Below are positions 949-20,205 of a stretch of DNA of 64,000 nucleotides, one piece after another. The stretch is from Umbelopsis ramanniana AG (lineage: Eukaryota > Mucoromycota > Umbelopsidomycetes > Umbelopsidales > Umbelopsidaceae), in NCBI RefSeq assembly GCF_025399195.1, contig NW_026252096.1, positions 310,001-374,000 of the forward strand. The letters run 5' to 3'. Under the pieces are notes generated by a model, which was not told the origin of the DNA, searched no databases, and was given only the letters and a program-made list of their open reading frames with translations. The translations under genes were made by a program, and so were the position numbers. How positions within the stretch are numbered: the stretch's first letter is position 1; every line of letters starts with the position of its first letter.

Positions 949-1540
949 GTTAAAAGGTTAAACAAAAAGAAGGAATCTTAAATTTGGCCCTACCGCCTTT
1001 GCAAATATTCCTTTCGCTCAAAAAATTTTTCGTTTCTGGGCCAGTAAAATTTCAAGCCACTGAAAGTCACATGATACATGATACATGAATTGTGAGAGTC
1101 ACGTGAGTAACCTCTTAATTGAGACCCAGAGTATGTTTTTATTGAAACACTTTTTATCTATTGTTTTTATGTGTGAACTCAAGGTTCACAATACACATAG
1201 AAAACACATCCCAAACCACATAGTGACTGATTGATAGGTCAATGGAAGGAGATATATCGTAAGAAACATCCTCAGGAAAAGATTTTGGTTATTTTAATCA
1301 AGATATATTTGCAAAACCAAGGCAATCTCCATAAGACATAGTCTCGGGAATGCTCCCTAGCGAACCTAAGAAAAGCATTCTGACAATGTTGGCTCTCTTT
1401 TTGCGAATTTTGCTGTGATCCAGAGACTTCAATCCAGGCAGCCCATCCCACCTCTGGAGAACAACCTTTCTATAAGATATTTGGACAGCTGGTTGGAGTT
1501 GGTCAGAACGCTGACCACTGGATCAAGGTCCCCTACCGAC
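949..1540. other. Intergenic, eL19 upstream region
   Basis: No gene seen. It holds the probable promoter and 5' leader of eL19 (reading leftward). A short tandem repeat of gatacat lies at about 1070-1086, and there is a CACGTGA palindromic core near 1100. Part of it may be the remnant 5' end of the Fanzor element that follows. Confidence 0.4.
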
Positions 1541-1551
1541 ATTTTTGTACG

Positions 1552-3530
1552 TTGATGTTATCAACTTTGGCATCAACATTTTACTCTGGTGCAGAGATGG
1601 TCACAAAAATTGCAAATCACATTGCCCACAATTTTGAACCGTATTGCTCGAACTACTTCTTTTTGCGCCTCAACAACGAGGCGGACACATGGTATGTTGC
1701 CAATGCCACGGTTAAAGAGAGAAAATCTCTCGCAAATTATTTATAAAAGCGAGCCGCCTCTCTTGAGGCGGCATGGCCAGGTGTCGGAAGCGACGAAATT
1801 TTGCGCAGCACATTTGATGACCGTGCGGCATCTATGGAGCGTGGCCAACTCCGATCACATAGGCCAGCTTGTTTGCCTCCCCGCACGCTTTCCTGCCATT
1901 TTTGCACACTGTCTTAACCTACATGGACTTGGTTGTCCATATCTTGGAACCTCATCCACAAAATTTTGTTTCGAAAAGATACATCTTTAGAAAGTTGAAA
2001 GAGGTATACTAACTATCTGATTGTCGTATTATGATTGATATGTATAGTAATCATTTGTTTAGCTTTTTGCTGGGACAAAAGTCCCAAACCGCGTTTATTT
2101 AAGCATCGAAGTAGCTGTGCATACAGCCATACAGCAACGGACCGACGTAGTTTTTGGGAGAAGACAAGCGCATAATGCAATTTTGGACAAAGTAGACTAG
2201 ATACAAGATTTTGTCACTCTAACCATTGGGGAACTAGAAGCGGGTACCTTTCGCCCGCAAAAATATACAGATCCAAAGGGATTCAGGAAGTTTACCATGC
2301 TTCCTGTAAAATAACTGCAAGCTGGTCATATTGCATTGGACGCGGCGACACTTCCTGTAATTTTGAGGGCAGCTGGATTGACCAACTGACGTACCTTGTC
2401 GCAAGAGGAGTTCGAACGGCTAGTATGGCGAAGTTTGATTTTACCCATCTTGGATTCGAAAGCCTTGAGGATTTGTTTACTGAAGATATTCAGTGGAGGT
2501 GAGTTTCTCATTGATAGGCTGTCTACATTGATATCTATCTGACGTTTATGTTGCAACCGATGTCTCCGGTCAGATGGCGTAGATATGATATTTTTATTTT
2601 TCAAGAAACTTTTATTGAATAGTGAGCCAAAGACGCCAGCTCATGAACGGAATTGGAATTTCCATGGTCAACATAGGTCTACAGTATAGGATGTTGATCC
2701 CGGAAAACCCGACATTTTTGTTGCTGTAGATGGAAGCAGCTCCAACCGCTACAGGATCCGCAAAACATCTAATCATGAACACCATGATCTTTGCGGGTTC
2801 AACCGGACAACCAACAAACGAAAAGATGGGTGGCTGAGAATGAGCATGCTCAACATTTAATCAACAACTCTGCCATCGGTCAAAACCGCCAATTTTGGAG
2901 AACTCTGCTTGGCAAAAACAAATCGGCTGGTCTGCTTTGGTGAAATTTGTGCTTTTCATGACGAGGATCAACGCTACCGCGTTTTGAAATTGAAGAACTA
3001 CAAAGGCCGATAACTGGCACTAGAGGAAATGAGACGAAGGCTCACTTTTGGGTCTAACAAGTATGGAAGTCATACAAAGCCATCCCATGGACACATGGTG
3101 GACCCTCTAGTGAAGAAAGACCAAGTTTTGTACCTCTTCCATCTATTGATAATGAAAATAAAGACAATATACACCACTACTTGATTGCATTTGGAAACGG
3201 CAGTGCCTCACACCTATGAGGAAAACTTCCCGCGCCATCCAAAGGACACCCACGACATTCAAAGTCTCTTTCCAAGCGTAAAGTATTTGTATCTACTATC
3301 ATTATTGACGAATATTTAACCTCACAAGTGTGCGCGGAATGCCACAAAAGAAGTCTAATCAATCTACGTGAAAGATCCTTGCCCTCTACTGCTACCGGAT
3401 CCAAAATTTATGCTGTCCTCAAGTGTACCTCTTGCAGCTCAGTATGGAACAGGGATGTAATGGCGGCAAAGAACATATTGTATATCTTTCAATTTATGGC
3501 CACGCACAATAATGAGAACGAACGCCGAGG
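1552..3530 (+). pseudogene. Decayed Fanzor (eukaryotic TnpB-like) RNA-guided nuclease gene
   Basis: Three stretches on the plus strand, separated by stops and frameshifts, line up in order with a Fanzor1-type protein. (1) 1552-1746: a helical N-terminal piece with KIANHIAHNFEPYCSNYF, like the N-terminal region of fungal Fanzors. (2) About 2190-2460: the motif FRKFTMLPVK followed by an ALDAATL-type helix, with in-frame stops. (3) 2693-2730: VDPGKPDIFVAV, the RuvC-I motif carrying the first catalytic Asp. At 3262-3500 in another frame come IIIDEYLTSQVCAECHKR, then CTSCSSVWNRDVMAAKNIL, that is the DE-x2-TS block, a zinc ribbon with two CxxC pairs, and the RuvC-III Asp (NRDVMAAKN). At least one frame change lies between 2900 and 3262, plus several stops, so no functional protein is expected. 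No clear terminal inverted repeats were found. The host element type is unknown. Confidence 0.82.
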
Positions 3531-3969
3531 AAGGCACTGGGCCAAGGGAAGCTCAGTTGCCGAGTGGTTAATCCAAGAGAGGAGAGGGACTTGTAGCCAG
3601 TTCGAAAGACCTCGACATCAATACACGGTAGGTACCAGAAAATTGCAAAACTGGTTTGTATTAAGCGCTGACCTGACTTTTCACGTGACGCAAACGATTT
3701 CGAAAAGATACAGTACCCGCGTGCACGGCGCTTGTGGTCGTGTGAGCTCACATGAACCCAACTTTATACCCTATTAGAAAATCCTGCAGCAGCCGGTGTT
3801 AAACGTTGTCGTTGTTGTGTTATAATAGGTTCCCTATCGACATCTTTTGCGATAGTATAGCTGCCTTCAAGTAATCTGAATTGTTCCTGAATAGGCTGAC
3901 TTTAAATAATTGTGCACAATAAGACCAGCGTACAAACTTCAAACTTTTTTTTCCTCCATCTACTCCGTC
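3531..3969 (+). other. Intergenic between Fanzor relic and phosphotransferase
   Basis: No gene supported. It includes a short tRNA-like D-arm string (gccgagtggttaa near 3560) that does not fold as a tRNA, and another CACGTGA core near 3684. The last part is the probable promoter and leader of the downstream phosphotransferase. Confidence 0.4.
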
Positions 3970-5512
3970 ATGCCTAATCGATTCACTGAGAACGCAAGGA
4001 TCCTGAGCGAAGAACAGCTTAGTAATTTGCGTTACTACAAATATCAAGCAGTTGACAAATCTCCAGTCAGTAAATATGTTTTACGCCATTACTGGGATTG
4101 GGCCATTAAGCTCTTTCCTATGTGGATTGCGTAAGTGAAAAGTTATCACTGTGTCTTGAGCCAGCGTTAACCATACTGAACTCTTGCTTCTGGTCCAATA
4201 GTCCCAATTTGATCACATTACTTGGCCTCTTTTTCATGATTTTCAATGTCATTCTGGTCGTCATATTCACACCAGACCTAGGTGTCGACGGACCACGATG
4301 GATATACTTCAGTTTCGCTGCTGGTCTCTGGCTTTACTCAACTTTTGATAATGTTGATGGCAGACAGGCTCGTCGAACCGGTACTTCTTCACCTCTTGGA
4401 GAATTGTTTGACCACGGCTGCGACTCTGTTAATTGTGCCTTTGTTGCTATACTTCAAGCAGCTGGAATGGGAATGGGCCATACAGTCCAAAGCGCTACCT
4501 TGGCCATTATTACAGCCTTAGGCTTTTACTTGTCAACAATTGAAGAATATCACACAGGAGTTTTGTACCTTGGGTACGTCAATGGTCCCACCGAAGGTCT
4601 TATTTTGTCCTGTATTGTCTTTATCATATCTGGCATAAAAGGTAGGTGTCGATGATGCCATAATTTTTGCGTTGATATAATTTTATCTCTAACTGTGGTG
4701 TAGGACCTGAACTTTGGCAATTGCCATTGAGTAAGCTTTTTGCCTCCGTACCATCATGCGTTCAAGATGCAACCATGGCAGACATTTTCGTATACGGATT
4801 GGCATTTTTCTTCATCTTTACACATTTACCCGTATGGTACGTATTTAAGCAAGTTATCTTCAAAATGAACTCAGTCCACTAAACCTCTCATTTCGTATAG
4901 TATCCATACCATATATCTGTCTTGCCGTCAGAAGCGTGAGGAATTTTGGCCTGTAGTTCTGCACGAATTCACGCCAATCGTCGCGTTCTCTTTACTATGC
5001 TATGCTTGGCTTCAGTCTCCATACTCTTACATACTGTCGAGCGAGCACTTAATTTTGTTCATCACTACTACTGGAATCATCTTCGGAAGGATCGCCTCCA
5101 AAGTCATTATCGCCCACCTGACAAAATCTCACTTCCCAACCTTCTCTAATCTTATGATACCCCTGTCTGTCGGCGTTGTCCTTGTCGAGTTTCCAAGGCT
5201 ACTTCATATGTAAGTGATAGTAAAAGTGCCAGTAATCTGTCAACTACACCTCATCTAAAAAAATTCATCTTCAATAGTAATCCTATTCTCAGCCCTCGAG
5301 CGGAATTTCTGTATCTTTGGGCCTTTTTCGCCTTTGCTGTGGTATCGTATTTACGCTGGGCCTTTATCATCATCAACCAGTTCTGCGACTATCTCGACAT
5401 TCAGTGCTTGAAGATACCATACAAAGCCAATCGTAACGGCAAAGGCAGAGAGCGTACACCATTATTGCGTGAACAAGAAGAAGGGCATGTTTATGGATCA
5501 TCTTCAGCTTGA
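3970..5512 (+). CDS. Choline/ethanolaminephosphotransferase (CDP-alcohol phosphotransferase family)
   Basis: Exons join(3970..4130,4202..4641,4704..4836,4901..5209,5278..5512), 425 aa. It transfers phosphocholine or phosphoethanolamine from the CDP-alcohol to diacylglycerol, the last step of the Kennedy pathway, in ER/Golgi membranes. Exon 2 carries the full family signature DG-x2-AR-x8-G-x3-D-x3-D (NVDGRQARRTG...GELFDHGCD), with the Asp residues that bind metal and CDP. It is preceded by PNLITLLGL, typical of CPT1/EPT1/CEPT1. The rest is mostly hydrophobic, with several membrane spans (roughly 7-10). All four introns have GT..AG ends and keep phase. Start at 3970 gives the usual N-terminus just before the first membrane region. 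Sequence alone does not decide between choline and ethanolamine specificity. Confidence 0.93.
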
Positions 5513-5677
5513 AGGGTACTATTTGTCTTGTAACAAAACAATTTGATTCCACTATAGTATTTAATAAAAAGCATCTTACTTTTAAAGCAATGCGTTTTAA
5601 AAGATTTGAATTAATTGACTGCGCAGCCGTGTCTTGAAAAAAAAAAAGATATGCTCTCTCACTGATTCCTCTCCACC

Positions 5678-6370
5678 ATGTCTGATCCTGACCATAAGGA
5701 CGAAATATGCTTCATTTCAAGAGGTCGATACGTCTCTGTCGAAGGCAGCTTCATAGAAAGTTGCGCCAATAACGCCAACATAGTAGTACCTGCACATATG
5801 GTCCAGAATCGAATCAAGCGCGACGGATTACAAGAGCATCACCTTACATTCATAAATCCTTTTGAGCTCAAAGATGCTGCTAGTAAGCTTGATATCAAAA
5901 AGAAAGCTGCTAGCCGAATTATAGAACGCATTCAAAACGAGCACGGTTTTCCTAGTACTTGGGAGCCACCTATCGATCTTGGCACTGGCAGAATTCTGGG
6001 CAAGGACAATGCGGTCACCCTGTTCAAAGTTATCCACTGGCCTGCAGGACAGGCTATTCGACAAAACCTCGGACTTGGTCATGCTTTCCTCCATGTCACT
6101 CTTGGTTTCGATCCAGCAGATATTCACCAATATAAAGGACCAGGATCCCTTGATACTCTTAATGGCATATCACAGTGTAGTCACCGCGACATTGAGCAAC
6201 TCACTTCTCTGCAACACCATTACCATGGAGATGGCGTATTCATGAAAAGACTGGCGATTCAGTGCTGGAAAACAGGCTTCTATAGGTGGGCTTTTTGGCT
6301 TACCTTTAGATATTCTCTCGGTAAGAAATTTTGCTTGCGGGTCATAATTGAATACAGCTTGGTAGATTAA
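5678..6370 (+). CDS. 2H phosphoesterase-superfamily protein (Swiss-army-knife 2H type)
   Basis: Single exon, 230 aa. The protein has two H-x-T motifs spaced as in 2H phosphoesterases: HHLTFINP near residue 50 and HAFLHVTLGF near residue 142, followed by DIHQYKGPG. 2H proteins act on cyclic phosphates or 2'-5' bonds in RNA and nucleotides; the variant with an H-x-TLGF second motif is found in Swiss-army-knife RNA-repair-like fungal and plant proteins. I infer such a role but cannot name a substrate. The C-terminal part (from residue 190) is aromatic-rich and may end in a hydrophobic segment. A GTAAGA..ACAG pair at 6321-6357 would make only a 37-nt intron, so I read through it. The start is the first ATG, in the context ctccaccATG. 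Confidence 0.7.
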   Translation: MSDPDHKDEICFISRGRYVSVEGSFIESCANNANIVVPAHMVQNRIKRDGLQEHHLTFINPFELKDAASKLDIKKKAASRIIERIQNEHGFPSTWEPPIDLGTGRILGKDNAVTLFKVIHWPAGQAIRQNLGLGHAFLHVTLGFDPADIHQYKGPGSLDTLNGISQCSHRDIEQLTSLQHHYHGDGVFMKRLAIQCWKTGFYRWAFWLTFRYSLGKKFCLRVIIEYSLVD

Positions 6371-6372
6371 CA

Positions 6373-6779
6373 GCTACATTCATAGCCACAATTAAACTAT
6401 ATATGACCGCAATCAAGTCTCCACGGTTACGATAACTTTCAACTTGACCATATTATCACTTTGAGAAACGTACGCACCAAGTGGACTTAGAAGCGATGTC
6501 TCAGCGAAGGAGCTTTTTGTTGCTCTGTACCTGCAAACAGGTAACTGTAATATAACCGACTAGTGCATCTACATCCATCATCTTTGGTAATACGAATTGA
6601 ATAAATATTCTACCATTTTTATATAATAACAATACGTCCAAAATCTTCAATTCAACTCTTTGGGTAGGAGAATGCTACATGGTTATACCGTTGCTATCCC
6701 ATCGTTGAGGACAGTCGTTGCGAGGGGACATCAGCCATGTTAATCAGTTATTACTTTTTTAGGTAGACCGCTCGTTACT
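6373..6779 (+). other. Intergenic, promoter region of the S33 peptidase gene
   Basis: No ORF or RNA gene is supported. The stretch is AT-rich (tatataataac near 6618-6630) and probably holds the 3' end of the upstream gene and the promoter of the hydrolase that starts at 6780. Confidence 0.4.
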
Positions 6780-8670
6780 ATGTCTTTTAACGCATTTTTA
6801 GGTACGAGGATACAAGGCTCACTGGTGCCTATAATTTCGAGACTGTCAATACAGTTTAGGCCGACACAACGGAAGGTACAAGAGTTTGCACTCACGTCGC
6901 GACGGGGTTTCTGGGTTGGATCTCAAGTACAATTGTCACCAAAAATGCAAGAACATCACTTGGACAGATCAGACGTGGAATCTTTTACCATTCCTGGTGC
7001 AAAAGTTTTTGATCGCTACTTCGATTTACCACTTGGTAAGATTGCCTCACTGAGGAACAGTCTTACAACATATAACTTGTCTCTGTAACGGTTTGGCTGA
7101 TCACATAAAACGAACTTATTGTAGCATACGACTCAAATGCCCAAGAGCAGAAGATCAAGGTCTTTTGTAGACACTTAGTCCCAATAAGCAAGGTCAGTGA
7201 AATGAAGCGACTGCCATTCCTGGTCTATCTTCAGGTAAAATCGTCAATATCCTGCCTATATGCTTTTCTCTTCGTCAAGACATTGAGTATCTTTCAATAG
7301 GGTGGACCTGGCTTTTCATGCGCGTTCCCCAAGATATCCGGTTGGATAAAGGTAGCTTTTGATAACGGTTATCAGGTGTTGCTACTGGATCAGCGTGGAA
7401 CTGGCTTATCATCCGCAATATCGGCAGACTCTCTTGCACATCTATCCGACCAAGGGAAGGCTGACTACCTCAAATGCTTTAGGGCTGACAGTATCGTACG
7501 AGATTGTGAGTCCATTAGGAAGCTTTTGACGTGGGATCGCTCAGAGGAACATGAATCTAGAATAACCTTACTTGGCCAGAGCTTTGGTGGATTTTGCATA
7601 ACGACGTACCTAAGCTTATTGTAAGTCTTCCACCTACAACTCTCCCACGCTTCGTTTTAATTTTCAGCTATTAACATTTGCCATTCGCTAGCCCCAAGTC
7701 TGTCAAGGCAGCTTATATTACAGGAGGTGTGCCTCCACTAGTTTCAACTCCAGATAAAGTCTATGAAAAAACATTTGCACGTATTCTCAAGCGAAACGAT
7801 GTATACTATGGAAAGTACCCGGCCGATGTTCAAAGAGTACAAAATATCATCAAATACTTGAACAACAATGAAATTAAGCTTCCAAATGGTGGCTTCCTAT
7901 CATCAAGAAGATTTCTTCAGCTTGGTCTTGCTTTTGGTGGATCGGGTGGTTACGACACTGTTCACGAAATAGTACTGCATGCTGCACAAGATCTTGAACT
8001 CCTGGGCAAACTCAGCTACAGTACCCTTAACAGTGTACAAACTCAGCAAGGTTTCGACACGAATGTCATTTATGCCATTTTGCATGAATCTATCTATTGT
8101 CAAGGCATGGCCAGTAACTGGAGTGCTGAGCGTGTCCGTATGTCGAGCCAGTATCTAAAGGATTTTGACTGGTCTGGTAACACCCGGGTCAATTTTACAG
8201 GTGAAACAGTTCATCCATTCATGTTTGATGACTATTCAGAACTTGTTCCTTTAAAGGAAGCTGCAGATATCTTGGCAAAATATGAGGATTGGGGCCCTCT
8301 TTACGATGTAGAGACTCTCAAGAACAATACTGTACCTGTGGCCGGTGTATCATATTTCGATGACATGTAAGAGATTTATATTGCACACTTTGATAACGCT
8401 TTTTGCAACGGCCGGCCATACTGACGAACGGAGCAACGTGTAGGTACGTCGACCTGGATCTCTCGATTGAAACGGCTAACACAATACAGGGATTTCAACC
8501 GTGGATAACAAATGAATTCGCTCACAAGTATGTATTTAGCTATTGCACTTCGATCATATCTTACATAATTAACTCATATAATGGCTCACAGTGGCTTGCG
8601 AGAGGATCCCGAGCGTGTGTTCGGCTATCTCATCAAACTTGCCCAAGGTGATCACGGAACAAACCGCTAA
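6780..8670 (+). CDS. Proline iminopeptidase-like alpha/beta hydrolase (peptidase S33)
   Basis: Exons join(6780..7035,7125..7234,7301..7620,7692..8366,8444..8527,8592..8670), 507 aa. It is predicted to remove N-terminal proline or similar residues from peptides. Family motifs appear in order: LQGGPGFSC (oxyanion loop, at the exon 2/3 join), LLLDQRGTGLSS, the nucleophile elbow LLGQSFGGFC, then FDDMYVD with the acid residue, and a late HNGLREDPERVFGYL with the catalytic His. All six exons join in phase with GT..AG introns. The N-terminal 55 residues are basic and extra relative to bacterial enzymes. Translation could instead begin at the Met near 6951, just before EHHLDRS, or the extension could be a targeting peptide. 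Function is from family knowledge; the substrate is not proven. Confidence 0.88.
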
Positions 8671-10120: not shown

Positions 10121-10575
10121 CTTTGCTGGAGTGAACTTTCCAAAACCGCCATCAATGCACAGTAATATTTATATGAGTCACAAGAGCACTCATTACTAAT
10201 CGGTCAAATCAGTGTGACCAGCAATTTGTGAAGCAGTAAAGAGGTTCATACTGCAGTATTGTAAGGCGTCCCAGAGCAAAGGCCACTTGTTAACGGAATG
10301 AGAAATGGCGGTTTGCCGTCGGTATTTCATTGTTCTGGTATTTAAATCAAAGATAGGTCATAATATTAGATAATATCCAATAAAATCATATGGTGAGCGA
10401 GAGAATACAACCCGAAATTGCTCTTGTAGCAGCGAGTAGCTTAGTCATGGCTAGCGAAGGAAATTTCACCCGTCGATACTGAGTGCATTACTGCGCAGAA
10501 GGACAACCAAAAAGAAAAAAAGTTTGCCGATAACTCCGGTCGATGAAATTTTGAAAAAAGAAAAAAAGAATGATG
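10121..10575. other. Upstream region of the reductase gene
   Basis: No gene supported. It contains the probable promoter of the reductase (reading leftward) and, at its right end, T-rich flank of the tRNA-Ser gene that resembles the flank of the second copy at 20 kb. Confidence 0.35.
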
Positions 10576-10682
10576 CGTCGACAACAGGATTTGAACCTGT
10601 GCGGGCAGAGCCCATGTGATTTCTAGTCACACTCCTTAACCACTCGGACATATCGACCTTCGATATGAGTTCGACCACCAAA
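10535..10682 (-). repeat. Duplicated tRNA-Ser segment, copy 1
   Basis: The identity with 20058-20205 extends past the tRNA. On the 5' side both copies have GGT(C/T)(G/C)AAC...ATCGAAG directly before the gene. On the 3' side both have GCA(T/A)CATTCTTTTTTT, then CAAAATTT(C/T)AT and a (GA/GG)CCG-containing string. The two segments are inverted relative to each other, about 9.5 kb apart. This suggests a small segmental duplication rather than two unrelated tRNA genes. Confidence 0.6.
10576..10657 (-). tRNA. tRNA-Ser (anticodon AGA)
   Basis: 82 nt, no intron. The acceptor stem GTCGATA pairs with TGTCGAC, with discriminator G. The D-arm is TCC-GAGTGGTTAA-GGA, the anticodon stem-loop is TGTGA-CTAGAAA-TCACA (anticodon AGA), a long variable arm GGGCTCTGCCC is typical of serine tRNAs, and the T-arm is CAGGTTCAAATCCTG. 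A T-run follows the 3' end, the RNA polymerase III terminator. An identical gene lies at 20081-20162 in opposite orientation. Confidence 0.97.
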
Positions 10683-20080: not shown

Positions 20081-20205
20081 GTCGATATGTCCGAGTGGTT
20101 AAGGAGTGTGACTAGAAATCACATGGGCTCTGCCCGCACAGGTTCAAATCCTGTTGTCGACGCAACATTCTTTTTTTATGTTTTTAGTTTCCATCAAAAT
20201 TTTAT
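20058..20205 (+). repeat. Duplicated tRNA-Ser segment, copy 2
   Basis: Partner of the segment at 10535-10682, inverted relative to it. The similarity covers the tRNA (identical) and roughly 20 bp upstream and 40 bp downstream (imperfect), so the duplication is older than the flanking differences but the tRNA has been kept unchanged. Confidence 0.6.
20081..20162 (+). tRNA. tRNA-Ser (anticodon AGA)
   Basis: 82 nt, base-for-base identical to the gene at 10576-10657. It has the same acceptor, D-arm, AGA anticodon loop CTAGAAA, long variable arm and T-arm, and a T-run follows (cattctttttttatg), consistent with polymerase III termination. Confidence 0.97.

What the first reader, a model, noticed from the sequence alone, without database searches (positions are those of the whole stretch)
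1552..3530. Fossil Fanzor (eukaryotic TnpB-type RNA-guided nuclease) gene
Seen: in order on one strand, an N-terminal helical piece, an FxxFTMLP block, the RuvC-I motif VDPGKPDIF, then IDEYLTSQVC, two CxxC zinc-ribbon pairs and NRDVMAAKNI. Known: this set of motifs defines Fanzor/TnpB nucleases, which pair with an RNA made from the element end. Inference: a Fanzor1-type copy lived here and decayed. The 3' flank (3531-3800) could hold the old guide-RNA end, and active relatives may exist elsewhere in this genome.
Basis: partly seen in the sequence, partly recalled or inferred. Interest (0 to 1): 0.75.

Follow-up and report, generated by a model that had tools for sequence, protein, structure and literature searches.

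The report
Dead copy of fungal Fanzor1 gene
The stretch is the broken remains of a gene for Fanzor1, a known kind of RNA-guided DNA-cutting protein, in a soil fungus (Umbelopsis); an unbroken sister gene sits elsewhere in the same genome, so the find is real but of an ordinary kind.

Summary
Window ~1385-3715 (+) is a decayed Fanzor1 gene in an Umbelopsis (Mucoromycota) genome. It is an 89%-identical DNA copy of an uninterrupted gene on contig C59 of the same genome, with two introns still recognisable. It has 8 in-frame stops, 7 clear frame-breaking indels, a lost 3' splice site and no 5' part, yet the catalytic and zinc-ribbon residues are legible. Membership rests on Pfam TNB (3.4e-10), profile matches to solved SpuFz1, PpFz1 and GtFz1 and fold matches to the same. 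Eight outgroups assign most amino-acid differences to the window copy, so C59 stayed constrained while this copy decayed. About 73 nt after the stop codon are as conserved as the best coding stretches and recur in two older fossils, where SpuFz1 has its guide RNA; but folds are no better than shuffles and Rfam is silent. Element ends, transposase and mobility are undetermined. Fanzor1 is already known in Mucor, Rhizopus and Phycomyces. New member of a known kind; low interest.

The parts
1249..1393 (.). Dispersed repeat piece abutting (and perhaps cutting off) the left end of the Fanzor copy
   Evidence: 82-92% identical pieces on C29, C109 and C6
1385..2003 (+). Remnant of exon 2 (N-terminal half of the nuclease), with stops and indels
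   Evidence: Alignment to C59
2004..2062 (+). Intron remnant (GT..AG kept)
   Evidence: Matches the 57-nt C59 intron
2063..2498 (+). Remnant of exon 3, including FRKFTMLP
2499..2556 (+). Intron remnant, acceptor AG changed
   Evidence: Matches the 61-nt C59 intron
2557..3571 (+). Remnant of exon 4: RuvC-I (2693-2719), RuvC-II (3304-3312), zinc ribbon (3331-3435), RuvC-III (3445-3456), stop codon 3569-3571
   Evidence: Pfam TNB on 3220-3777; codon alignment to C59; hhalign to relatives
3572..3645 (+). Conserved post-stop stretch, candidate fossil guide-RNA region (lead only)
   Evidence: 2 mismatches and 1 insertion in 73 aligned columns against C59; aligned in C56 (to 3630) and C7
3646..3715 (+). 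Rest of the 3' homology to C59; end of detectable similarity
   Evidence: 83% identity, ends at 3715

Best explanation
Window ~1385-3715 is a pseudogene: a DNA-level copy of a Fanzor1 gene that arose by duplication or transposition in an Umbelopsis lineage, lacks its 5' part next to a dispersed repeat, and decayed. Shown: homology, retained introns, disabling lesions, family and fold of close relatives, an unbroken paralogue in the same genome. Inferred from published Fanzor1 work: the ancestral protein bound an RNA made from its own 3' end and used the RuvC triad (D of VDPGK, E of IDEY, D of NRD) to cut DNA matching the guide. The window copy can no longer make that protein; the C59 gene may.
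For: 89% identity to an uninterrupted gene over 2415 columns; 8 stops in 690 codons and 7 clear frame-breaking indels; Pfam TNB 3.4e-10; PDB profile hits SpuFz1 5.3e-12, PpFz1 5.4e-9, GtFz1 1.2e-4; Foldseek's first seven matches for relative P0003 are SpuFz, PpFz and GtFz; family motif of PMC3627910 met in C59, D-to-TS spacing 207; all 8 outgroups tested agree more often with C59 than with the window copy.
Against: Mimivirus Fanzor2 (9b0l, 8.2e-5) scores about as well as GtFz1 in the profile search. On VIA Z, Cas-phi scores between SpuFz and PpFz, and TnpB and Cas12f score above GtFz, so fold alone gives only the Cas12/TnpB/Fanzor group. No tree was built. No element ends or target-site duplication were found, so a plain segmental duplication is as possible as transposition.
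Confidence: 0.96

Rival explanations
1. The protein is dead but the locus is a ghost: its 3' end still yields a guide RNA that the C59 nuclease uses in trans, as proposed for the ORF-less ghost loci of Spizellomyces punctatus (PMC10432273).
For: The post-stop 73 columns are 97% identical to C59 while the next 70 are 83%; place and size fit the 75-nt SpuFz1 scaffold (section read).
Against: Fold energies are those of shuffles; the window copy is the worst (z +1.72, 194 of 200 shuffles fold at least as well). 40 of 2337 windows of that length are as conserved, four separate coding stretches among them. No expression data.
Confidence: 0.06
2. The sequence is a TnpB or Fanzor2 gene of recent bacterial or viral origin.
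For: TnpB and Fanzor2 models also match the C-terminus.
Against: NCBIfam TnpB models match far below their cut-offs (27.7 against 100 bits at best); introns; the best solved relatives are Fanzor1; named relatives are fungal.
Confidence: 0.02
3. An unrelated zinc-ribbon protein, with the RuvC motifs matched by chance.
For: TNB-like hits can be spurious: the C15 hit of this genome is LIM-like by eye.
Against: RuvC-I to RuvC-III in order in an uninterrupted paralogue; profile and fold matches to Fanzors.
Confidence: 0.01

Closest known systems
Unnamed proteins of Umbelopsis vinacea (P0001), U. ramanniana (P0028) and U. isabellina (P0031)
   Same: Same gene family as C59: P0001 65% identical over 35% of the 879-residue query, P0028 81% over 380 residues, P0031 65% over 30% of the last exon; P0001 also matches 5' exons of C59
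   Different: Listed only as unnamed or hypothetical proteins; each covers part of the gene
Fanzor1 of Spizellomyces punctatus (SpuFz1 / SPu-1)
   Same: RuvC and TNB sequence and fold, DEY-TS-C block, NRD
   Different: About 20% identical; SPu-1 is a multi-copy single-ORF element with 30-33 bp inverted repeats; none found here
Fanzor1 of Parasitella parasitica (PpFz1) and Fanzor1 families of Mucor, Rhizopus, Phycomyces
   Same: Mucoromycotan Fanzor1, profile E 5.4e-9; Parasitella and Rhizopus proteins among relatives
   Different: The FRI insertion of PpFz1 (passage) was not looked for here; several of those families have element ends (passages)

Membership tests
Fanzor/TnpB superfamily | Motif D-X(125,275)-[TS]-[TS]-X-X-[C4 zinc finger]-X(5,50)-RD (PMC3627910) | tested here: met
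   C59: from RuvC-I D579 to D832, spacing 207; the same residues read in the window copy, frames broken
Fanzor/TnpB superfamily | TNB domain above curated cut-off | tested here: met
   Window 3220-3777: 40.4 bits, cut-off 26.3; C59: 38.6
Fanzor1 | Closest solved relatives are Fanzor1 by sequence and fold | tested here: met
   Best profile and Foldseek matches are SpuFz1 and PpFz1, though 9b0l (Fanzor2) equals GtFz1 in the profile search
Fanzor1 | Position in the Fanzor1 clade of a tree | not tested
   No tree was built
Fanzor1 | Catalytic D, E, D | tested here: met
   D579, the E of IDEY and the D of NRD are present in C59 and legible in the window; the D, E and D columns are invariant in A1
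Fanzor1 | Guide RNA from the right end | tested here: inconclusive
   Conserved post-stop sequence, no structure signal
Fanzor1 mobile element | Terminal repeats, target-site duplication or companion transposase | tested here: inconclusive
   No inverted repeats in C59; left end of the window copy lost; no empty site available; flanks not scanned for transposase families
Fanzor1 | RNA-guided DNA cleavage | not testable with these tools
   Needs biochemistry on the C59 protein

The most novel reading that the evidence does not exclude
The genome keeps one intact, selected Fanzor1 (C59: introns, a zinc-knuckle-like N-terminal motif, no recognisable element ends) that may be a domesticated host gene, and decayed copies such as the window one persist as guide-RNA donors for it in trans, so that fossils help to set the live nuclease's targets.
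Probability: 0.05. Interest if true: 0.65.

Novelty: new member of a known kind. Interest (0 to 1): 0.2.

Why it matters
It adds Umbelopsis to the fungi with Fanzor1 relics and points to an unbroken, apparently selected Fanzor1 gene there. Its value is as a lead: the C59 gene and its 3' flank can be tested directly, and several fossils in one genome give material for finding the element's right end. The dead copy itself teaches little.

Tried and rejected
tRNA-like reading of about 3554-3630 (by eye, A-box-like and B-box-like words): ARAGORN finds no tRNA there and cmscan at E up to 1 on L001, L009, L010 and L015 finds no family; dropped.

Guide/scaffold boundary: the C56 alignment ends at window 3630, but C7 continues to about 3657, and metagenome protein P0023, read past a frame change, still resembles the window's translation further on; no boundary claimed. 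GT words there could also be splice donors; not resolved.

A hairpin after the C59 stop, seen in its predicted fold: z-scores -0.27 and +0.26 (C59), -0.38 (C56), -0.67 (C7), -0.25 and +1.72 (window). No covariance model was built; four sequences with different predicted folds would not carry one.

Inverted repeats in C59: none beyond a 7-nt word; an 18-column direct similarity of the two presumed ends is short enough to be chance.

3' end in other Fanzor loci: C76, C58, C42, C122 and C6 do not align to it above the best of 100 shuffles. A search for copies of the 3' end alone returned only C59 and the window, but that search also missed C7 and C56, so its sensitivity is limited.

IMG/VR scan: two loci, 39% identical over the zinc-ribbon part; not close relatives.

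Families not listed by VIA are not excluded.

Full report
Check of the observation. The strongest piece, 3220-3777, matches Pfam Cas12f1-like_TNB with E 3.4e-10, 40.4 bits against a cut-off of 26.3. The C-terminal motif pattern occurs once in the window and never in 30 simulated windows. The other seven pieces scanned have no significant Pfam match; Fanzor N-termini are known to be variable (PMC3627910).

The paralogue. A DNA search of the own genome (22.8 Mb, 123 contigs) gave 8 rows: the window itself, a long 89% match on C59, and six short ones, four of which (C29, C109, C6, C3) match only the stretch left of the gene. The C59 copy (locus L009, minus strand) reads as a gene: four exons joined at three GT-AG introns (99, 57, 61 nt), boundaries set by me, give 879 residues without a stop. 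Further 5' exons probably exist, because the Umbelopsis vinacea protein P0001 matches pieces upstream of this model, so 879 is a minimum. Near its N-terminus is CASCGQEGH...C, zinc-knuckle-like but below the Pfam cut-off (18.3 against 22 bits).

The window copy against C59. Identity is 89% over 2415 alignment columns, window 1367-3715. The first 20 or so columns are blurred by a dispersed repeat that ends at 1386-1393. Both introns in range are kept as sequence, so the copy was made from DNA, not from spliced RNA; the second has lost its AG. Of 690 comparable codons 105 differ in meaning, 8 of them stops. Nine indels fall in coding columns: one (24 nt) is in frame, one lies in the blurred left edge, and seven clearly break the frame. 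The catalytic D, E and D and the four zinc cysteines are still legible.

Which copy decayed. For codons that differ between the copies I asked which copy an outgroup agrees with, using only codons in neighbourhoods at least 40% identical to the outgroup. Agree with C59 / with window / with neither, of n: P0001 15/1/10 of 26; P0028 35/16/3 of 54; P0003 34/3/5 of 42; P0004 28/5/9 of 42; P0005 28/3/9 of 40; P0006 23/6/6 of 35; P0008 19/3/12 of 34; P0023 9/2/0 of 11. All eight lean to C59, P0028 least (it sides with the window at 16 codons). Differences by codon position are 62, 47 and 78 of about 694 each, a mild excess at third positions, as expected if one branch was constrained and the other not. 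P0023 itself looks like a decayed or misread frame.

Family. A profile of C59's last exon plus 22 of the 35 proteins (alignment A1) matches SpuFz1 (5.3e-12), PpFz1 (5.4e-9), TnpB-like protein L79, listed as mimivirus Fanzor2 (8.2e-5), and GtFz1 (1.2e-4), then Cas12m and LaTranC. An AlphaFold model of P0003 (89% identical to C59) with 20 relatives as alignment has mean pLDDT 78.5 and pTM 0.75. Foldseek's first seven matches are SpuFz, PpFz and GtFz. On VIA Z the SpuFz entries lead (14.5-15.6; rmsd 4.7-5.3 over 250-256 residues), but Cas-phi (13.8 and 13.2) scores above PpFz (13.0 and 12.0), and TnpB (11.3) and Cas12f above GtFz (10.4). So the fold alone shows a RuvC nuclease of the Cas12/TnpB/Fanzor group, and only sequence and fold together point to Fanzor1. 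The catalytic layout (D on a RuvC strand, E between the last strand and TNB, D on the helix) is that described in PMC11423790 section 7 (section read).

Host. A neighbouring phosphotransferase (partial, exons joined by me) is 90% identical to Umbelopsis sp. PMI_123 and 86% to U. isabellina, the next genera at 67% or less (best 120 of 684 listed). The named proteins most identical to C59 are also from Umbelopsis. The genome is therefore taken as Umbelopsis, species not determined.

Other copies. A protein search of the own genome with the last exon gives 11 rows: C59, two for the window, and eight others (C56, C7, C6, C76, C115, C42, C58, C122); five of the eight have stops inside, and the three without stops lie in open frames of 90, 157 and 53 residues. 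The TNB family search gives 11 rows, 7 over cut-off, the window and C59 among them; of the 7, C15 reads as a LIM-type protein by eye. In the five copies whose open frames I listed (C42, C76, C115, C58, C56, frames of 70 or more) I saw no second unbroken gene of this family. A different Fanzor-like locus on C29 was not resolved.

The 3' end. The 73 aligned columns after the C59 stop have 2 mismatches and one insertion, against 8-10% mismatches in the exons and 17% in the next 70 columns. Of 2337 windows of that length 40 are as good, four separate coding stretches among them. C56 and C7 also align there above shuffles, C76, C58, C42, C122 and C6 do not. SpuFz1's RNA has a 75-nt scaffold between stop and right end plus a 14-15 nt guide (PMC10432273 section 7, section read), so place and size fit. 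But folding energies are like those of shuffles and there is no Rfam match. I give the guide-RNA reading as a lead only.

Novelty. PMC3627910 (abstract, part 1 of 3 of the Results, and passages seen) lists Fanzor1 families in Spizellomyces, Allomyces, Rhizopus, Phycomyces and Mucor, some without terminal repeats. A search for papers with both Fanzor and Umbelopsis in the held library found none, nor for Fanzor with Mucoromycota; that library lacks most subscription papers. The finding is a new member of a known kind.

Noticed in passing
L009 minus strand, 586-757 of the reverse complement (G000 C59): Just upstream of the intact Fanzor1 gene lies the 3' piece of another, different Fanzor fossil (ICKNCQILWQR.INAGKN), similar to those on C58 and C76: two Fanzor families side by side.
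   Followed up: partly
L053 minus strand (G000 C29:3000-9000): A further Fanzor1-like gene or fossil of another family (VAIDPGRRD, LMDEFCTSKHCPSC, VWNRDMAACLN); whether it is intact with introns was not settled.
   Followed up: partly
L050 and L052 (G000 C40, C48): Short frames with NE(F/Y)YTSKKCP.C and zinc-ribbon motifs, and in C40 HRDTMAGQN: a third Fanzor-like type, two places on C40.
   Followed up: no
L027 minus strand, 4324-7303 (G000 C42): A Fanzor C-terminal piece and, 2.4 kb upstream, a GHTRSSSKACP zinc-knuckle piece like that of C59, with what looks by eye like retrotransposon reading frames between them.
   Followed up: no
window 1091-1393: Patchwork of dispersed repeat pieces between the ribosomal-protein gene (L19 by eye) and the Fanzor fossil, each with its own set of matches elsewhere.
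   Followed up: partly
L035:3207-5330 (+): A 707-residue TnpB-like reading frame on a 245-kb IMG/VR contig, 39% identical to the query over the zinc-ribbon part.
   Followed up: no
window 10575-10657 (-) and 20081-20163 (+): Two tRNA-Ser(AGA) genes within 10 kb on opposite strands.
   Followed up: no
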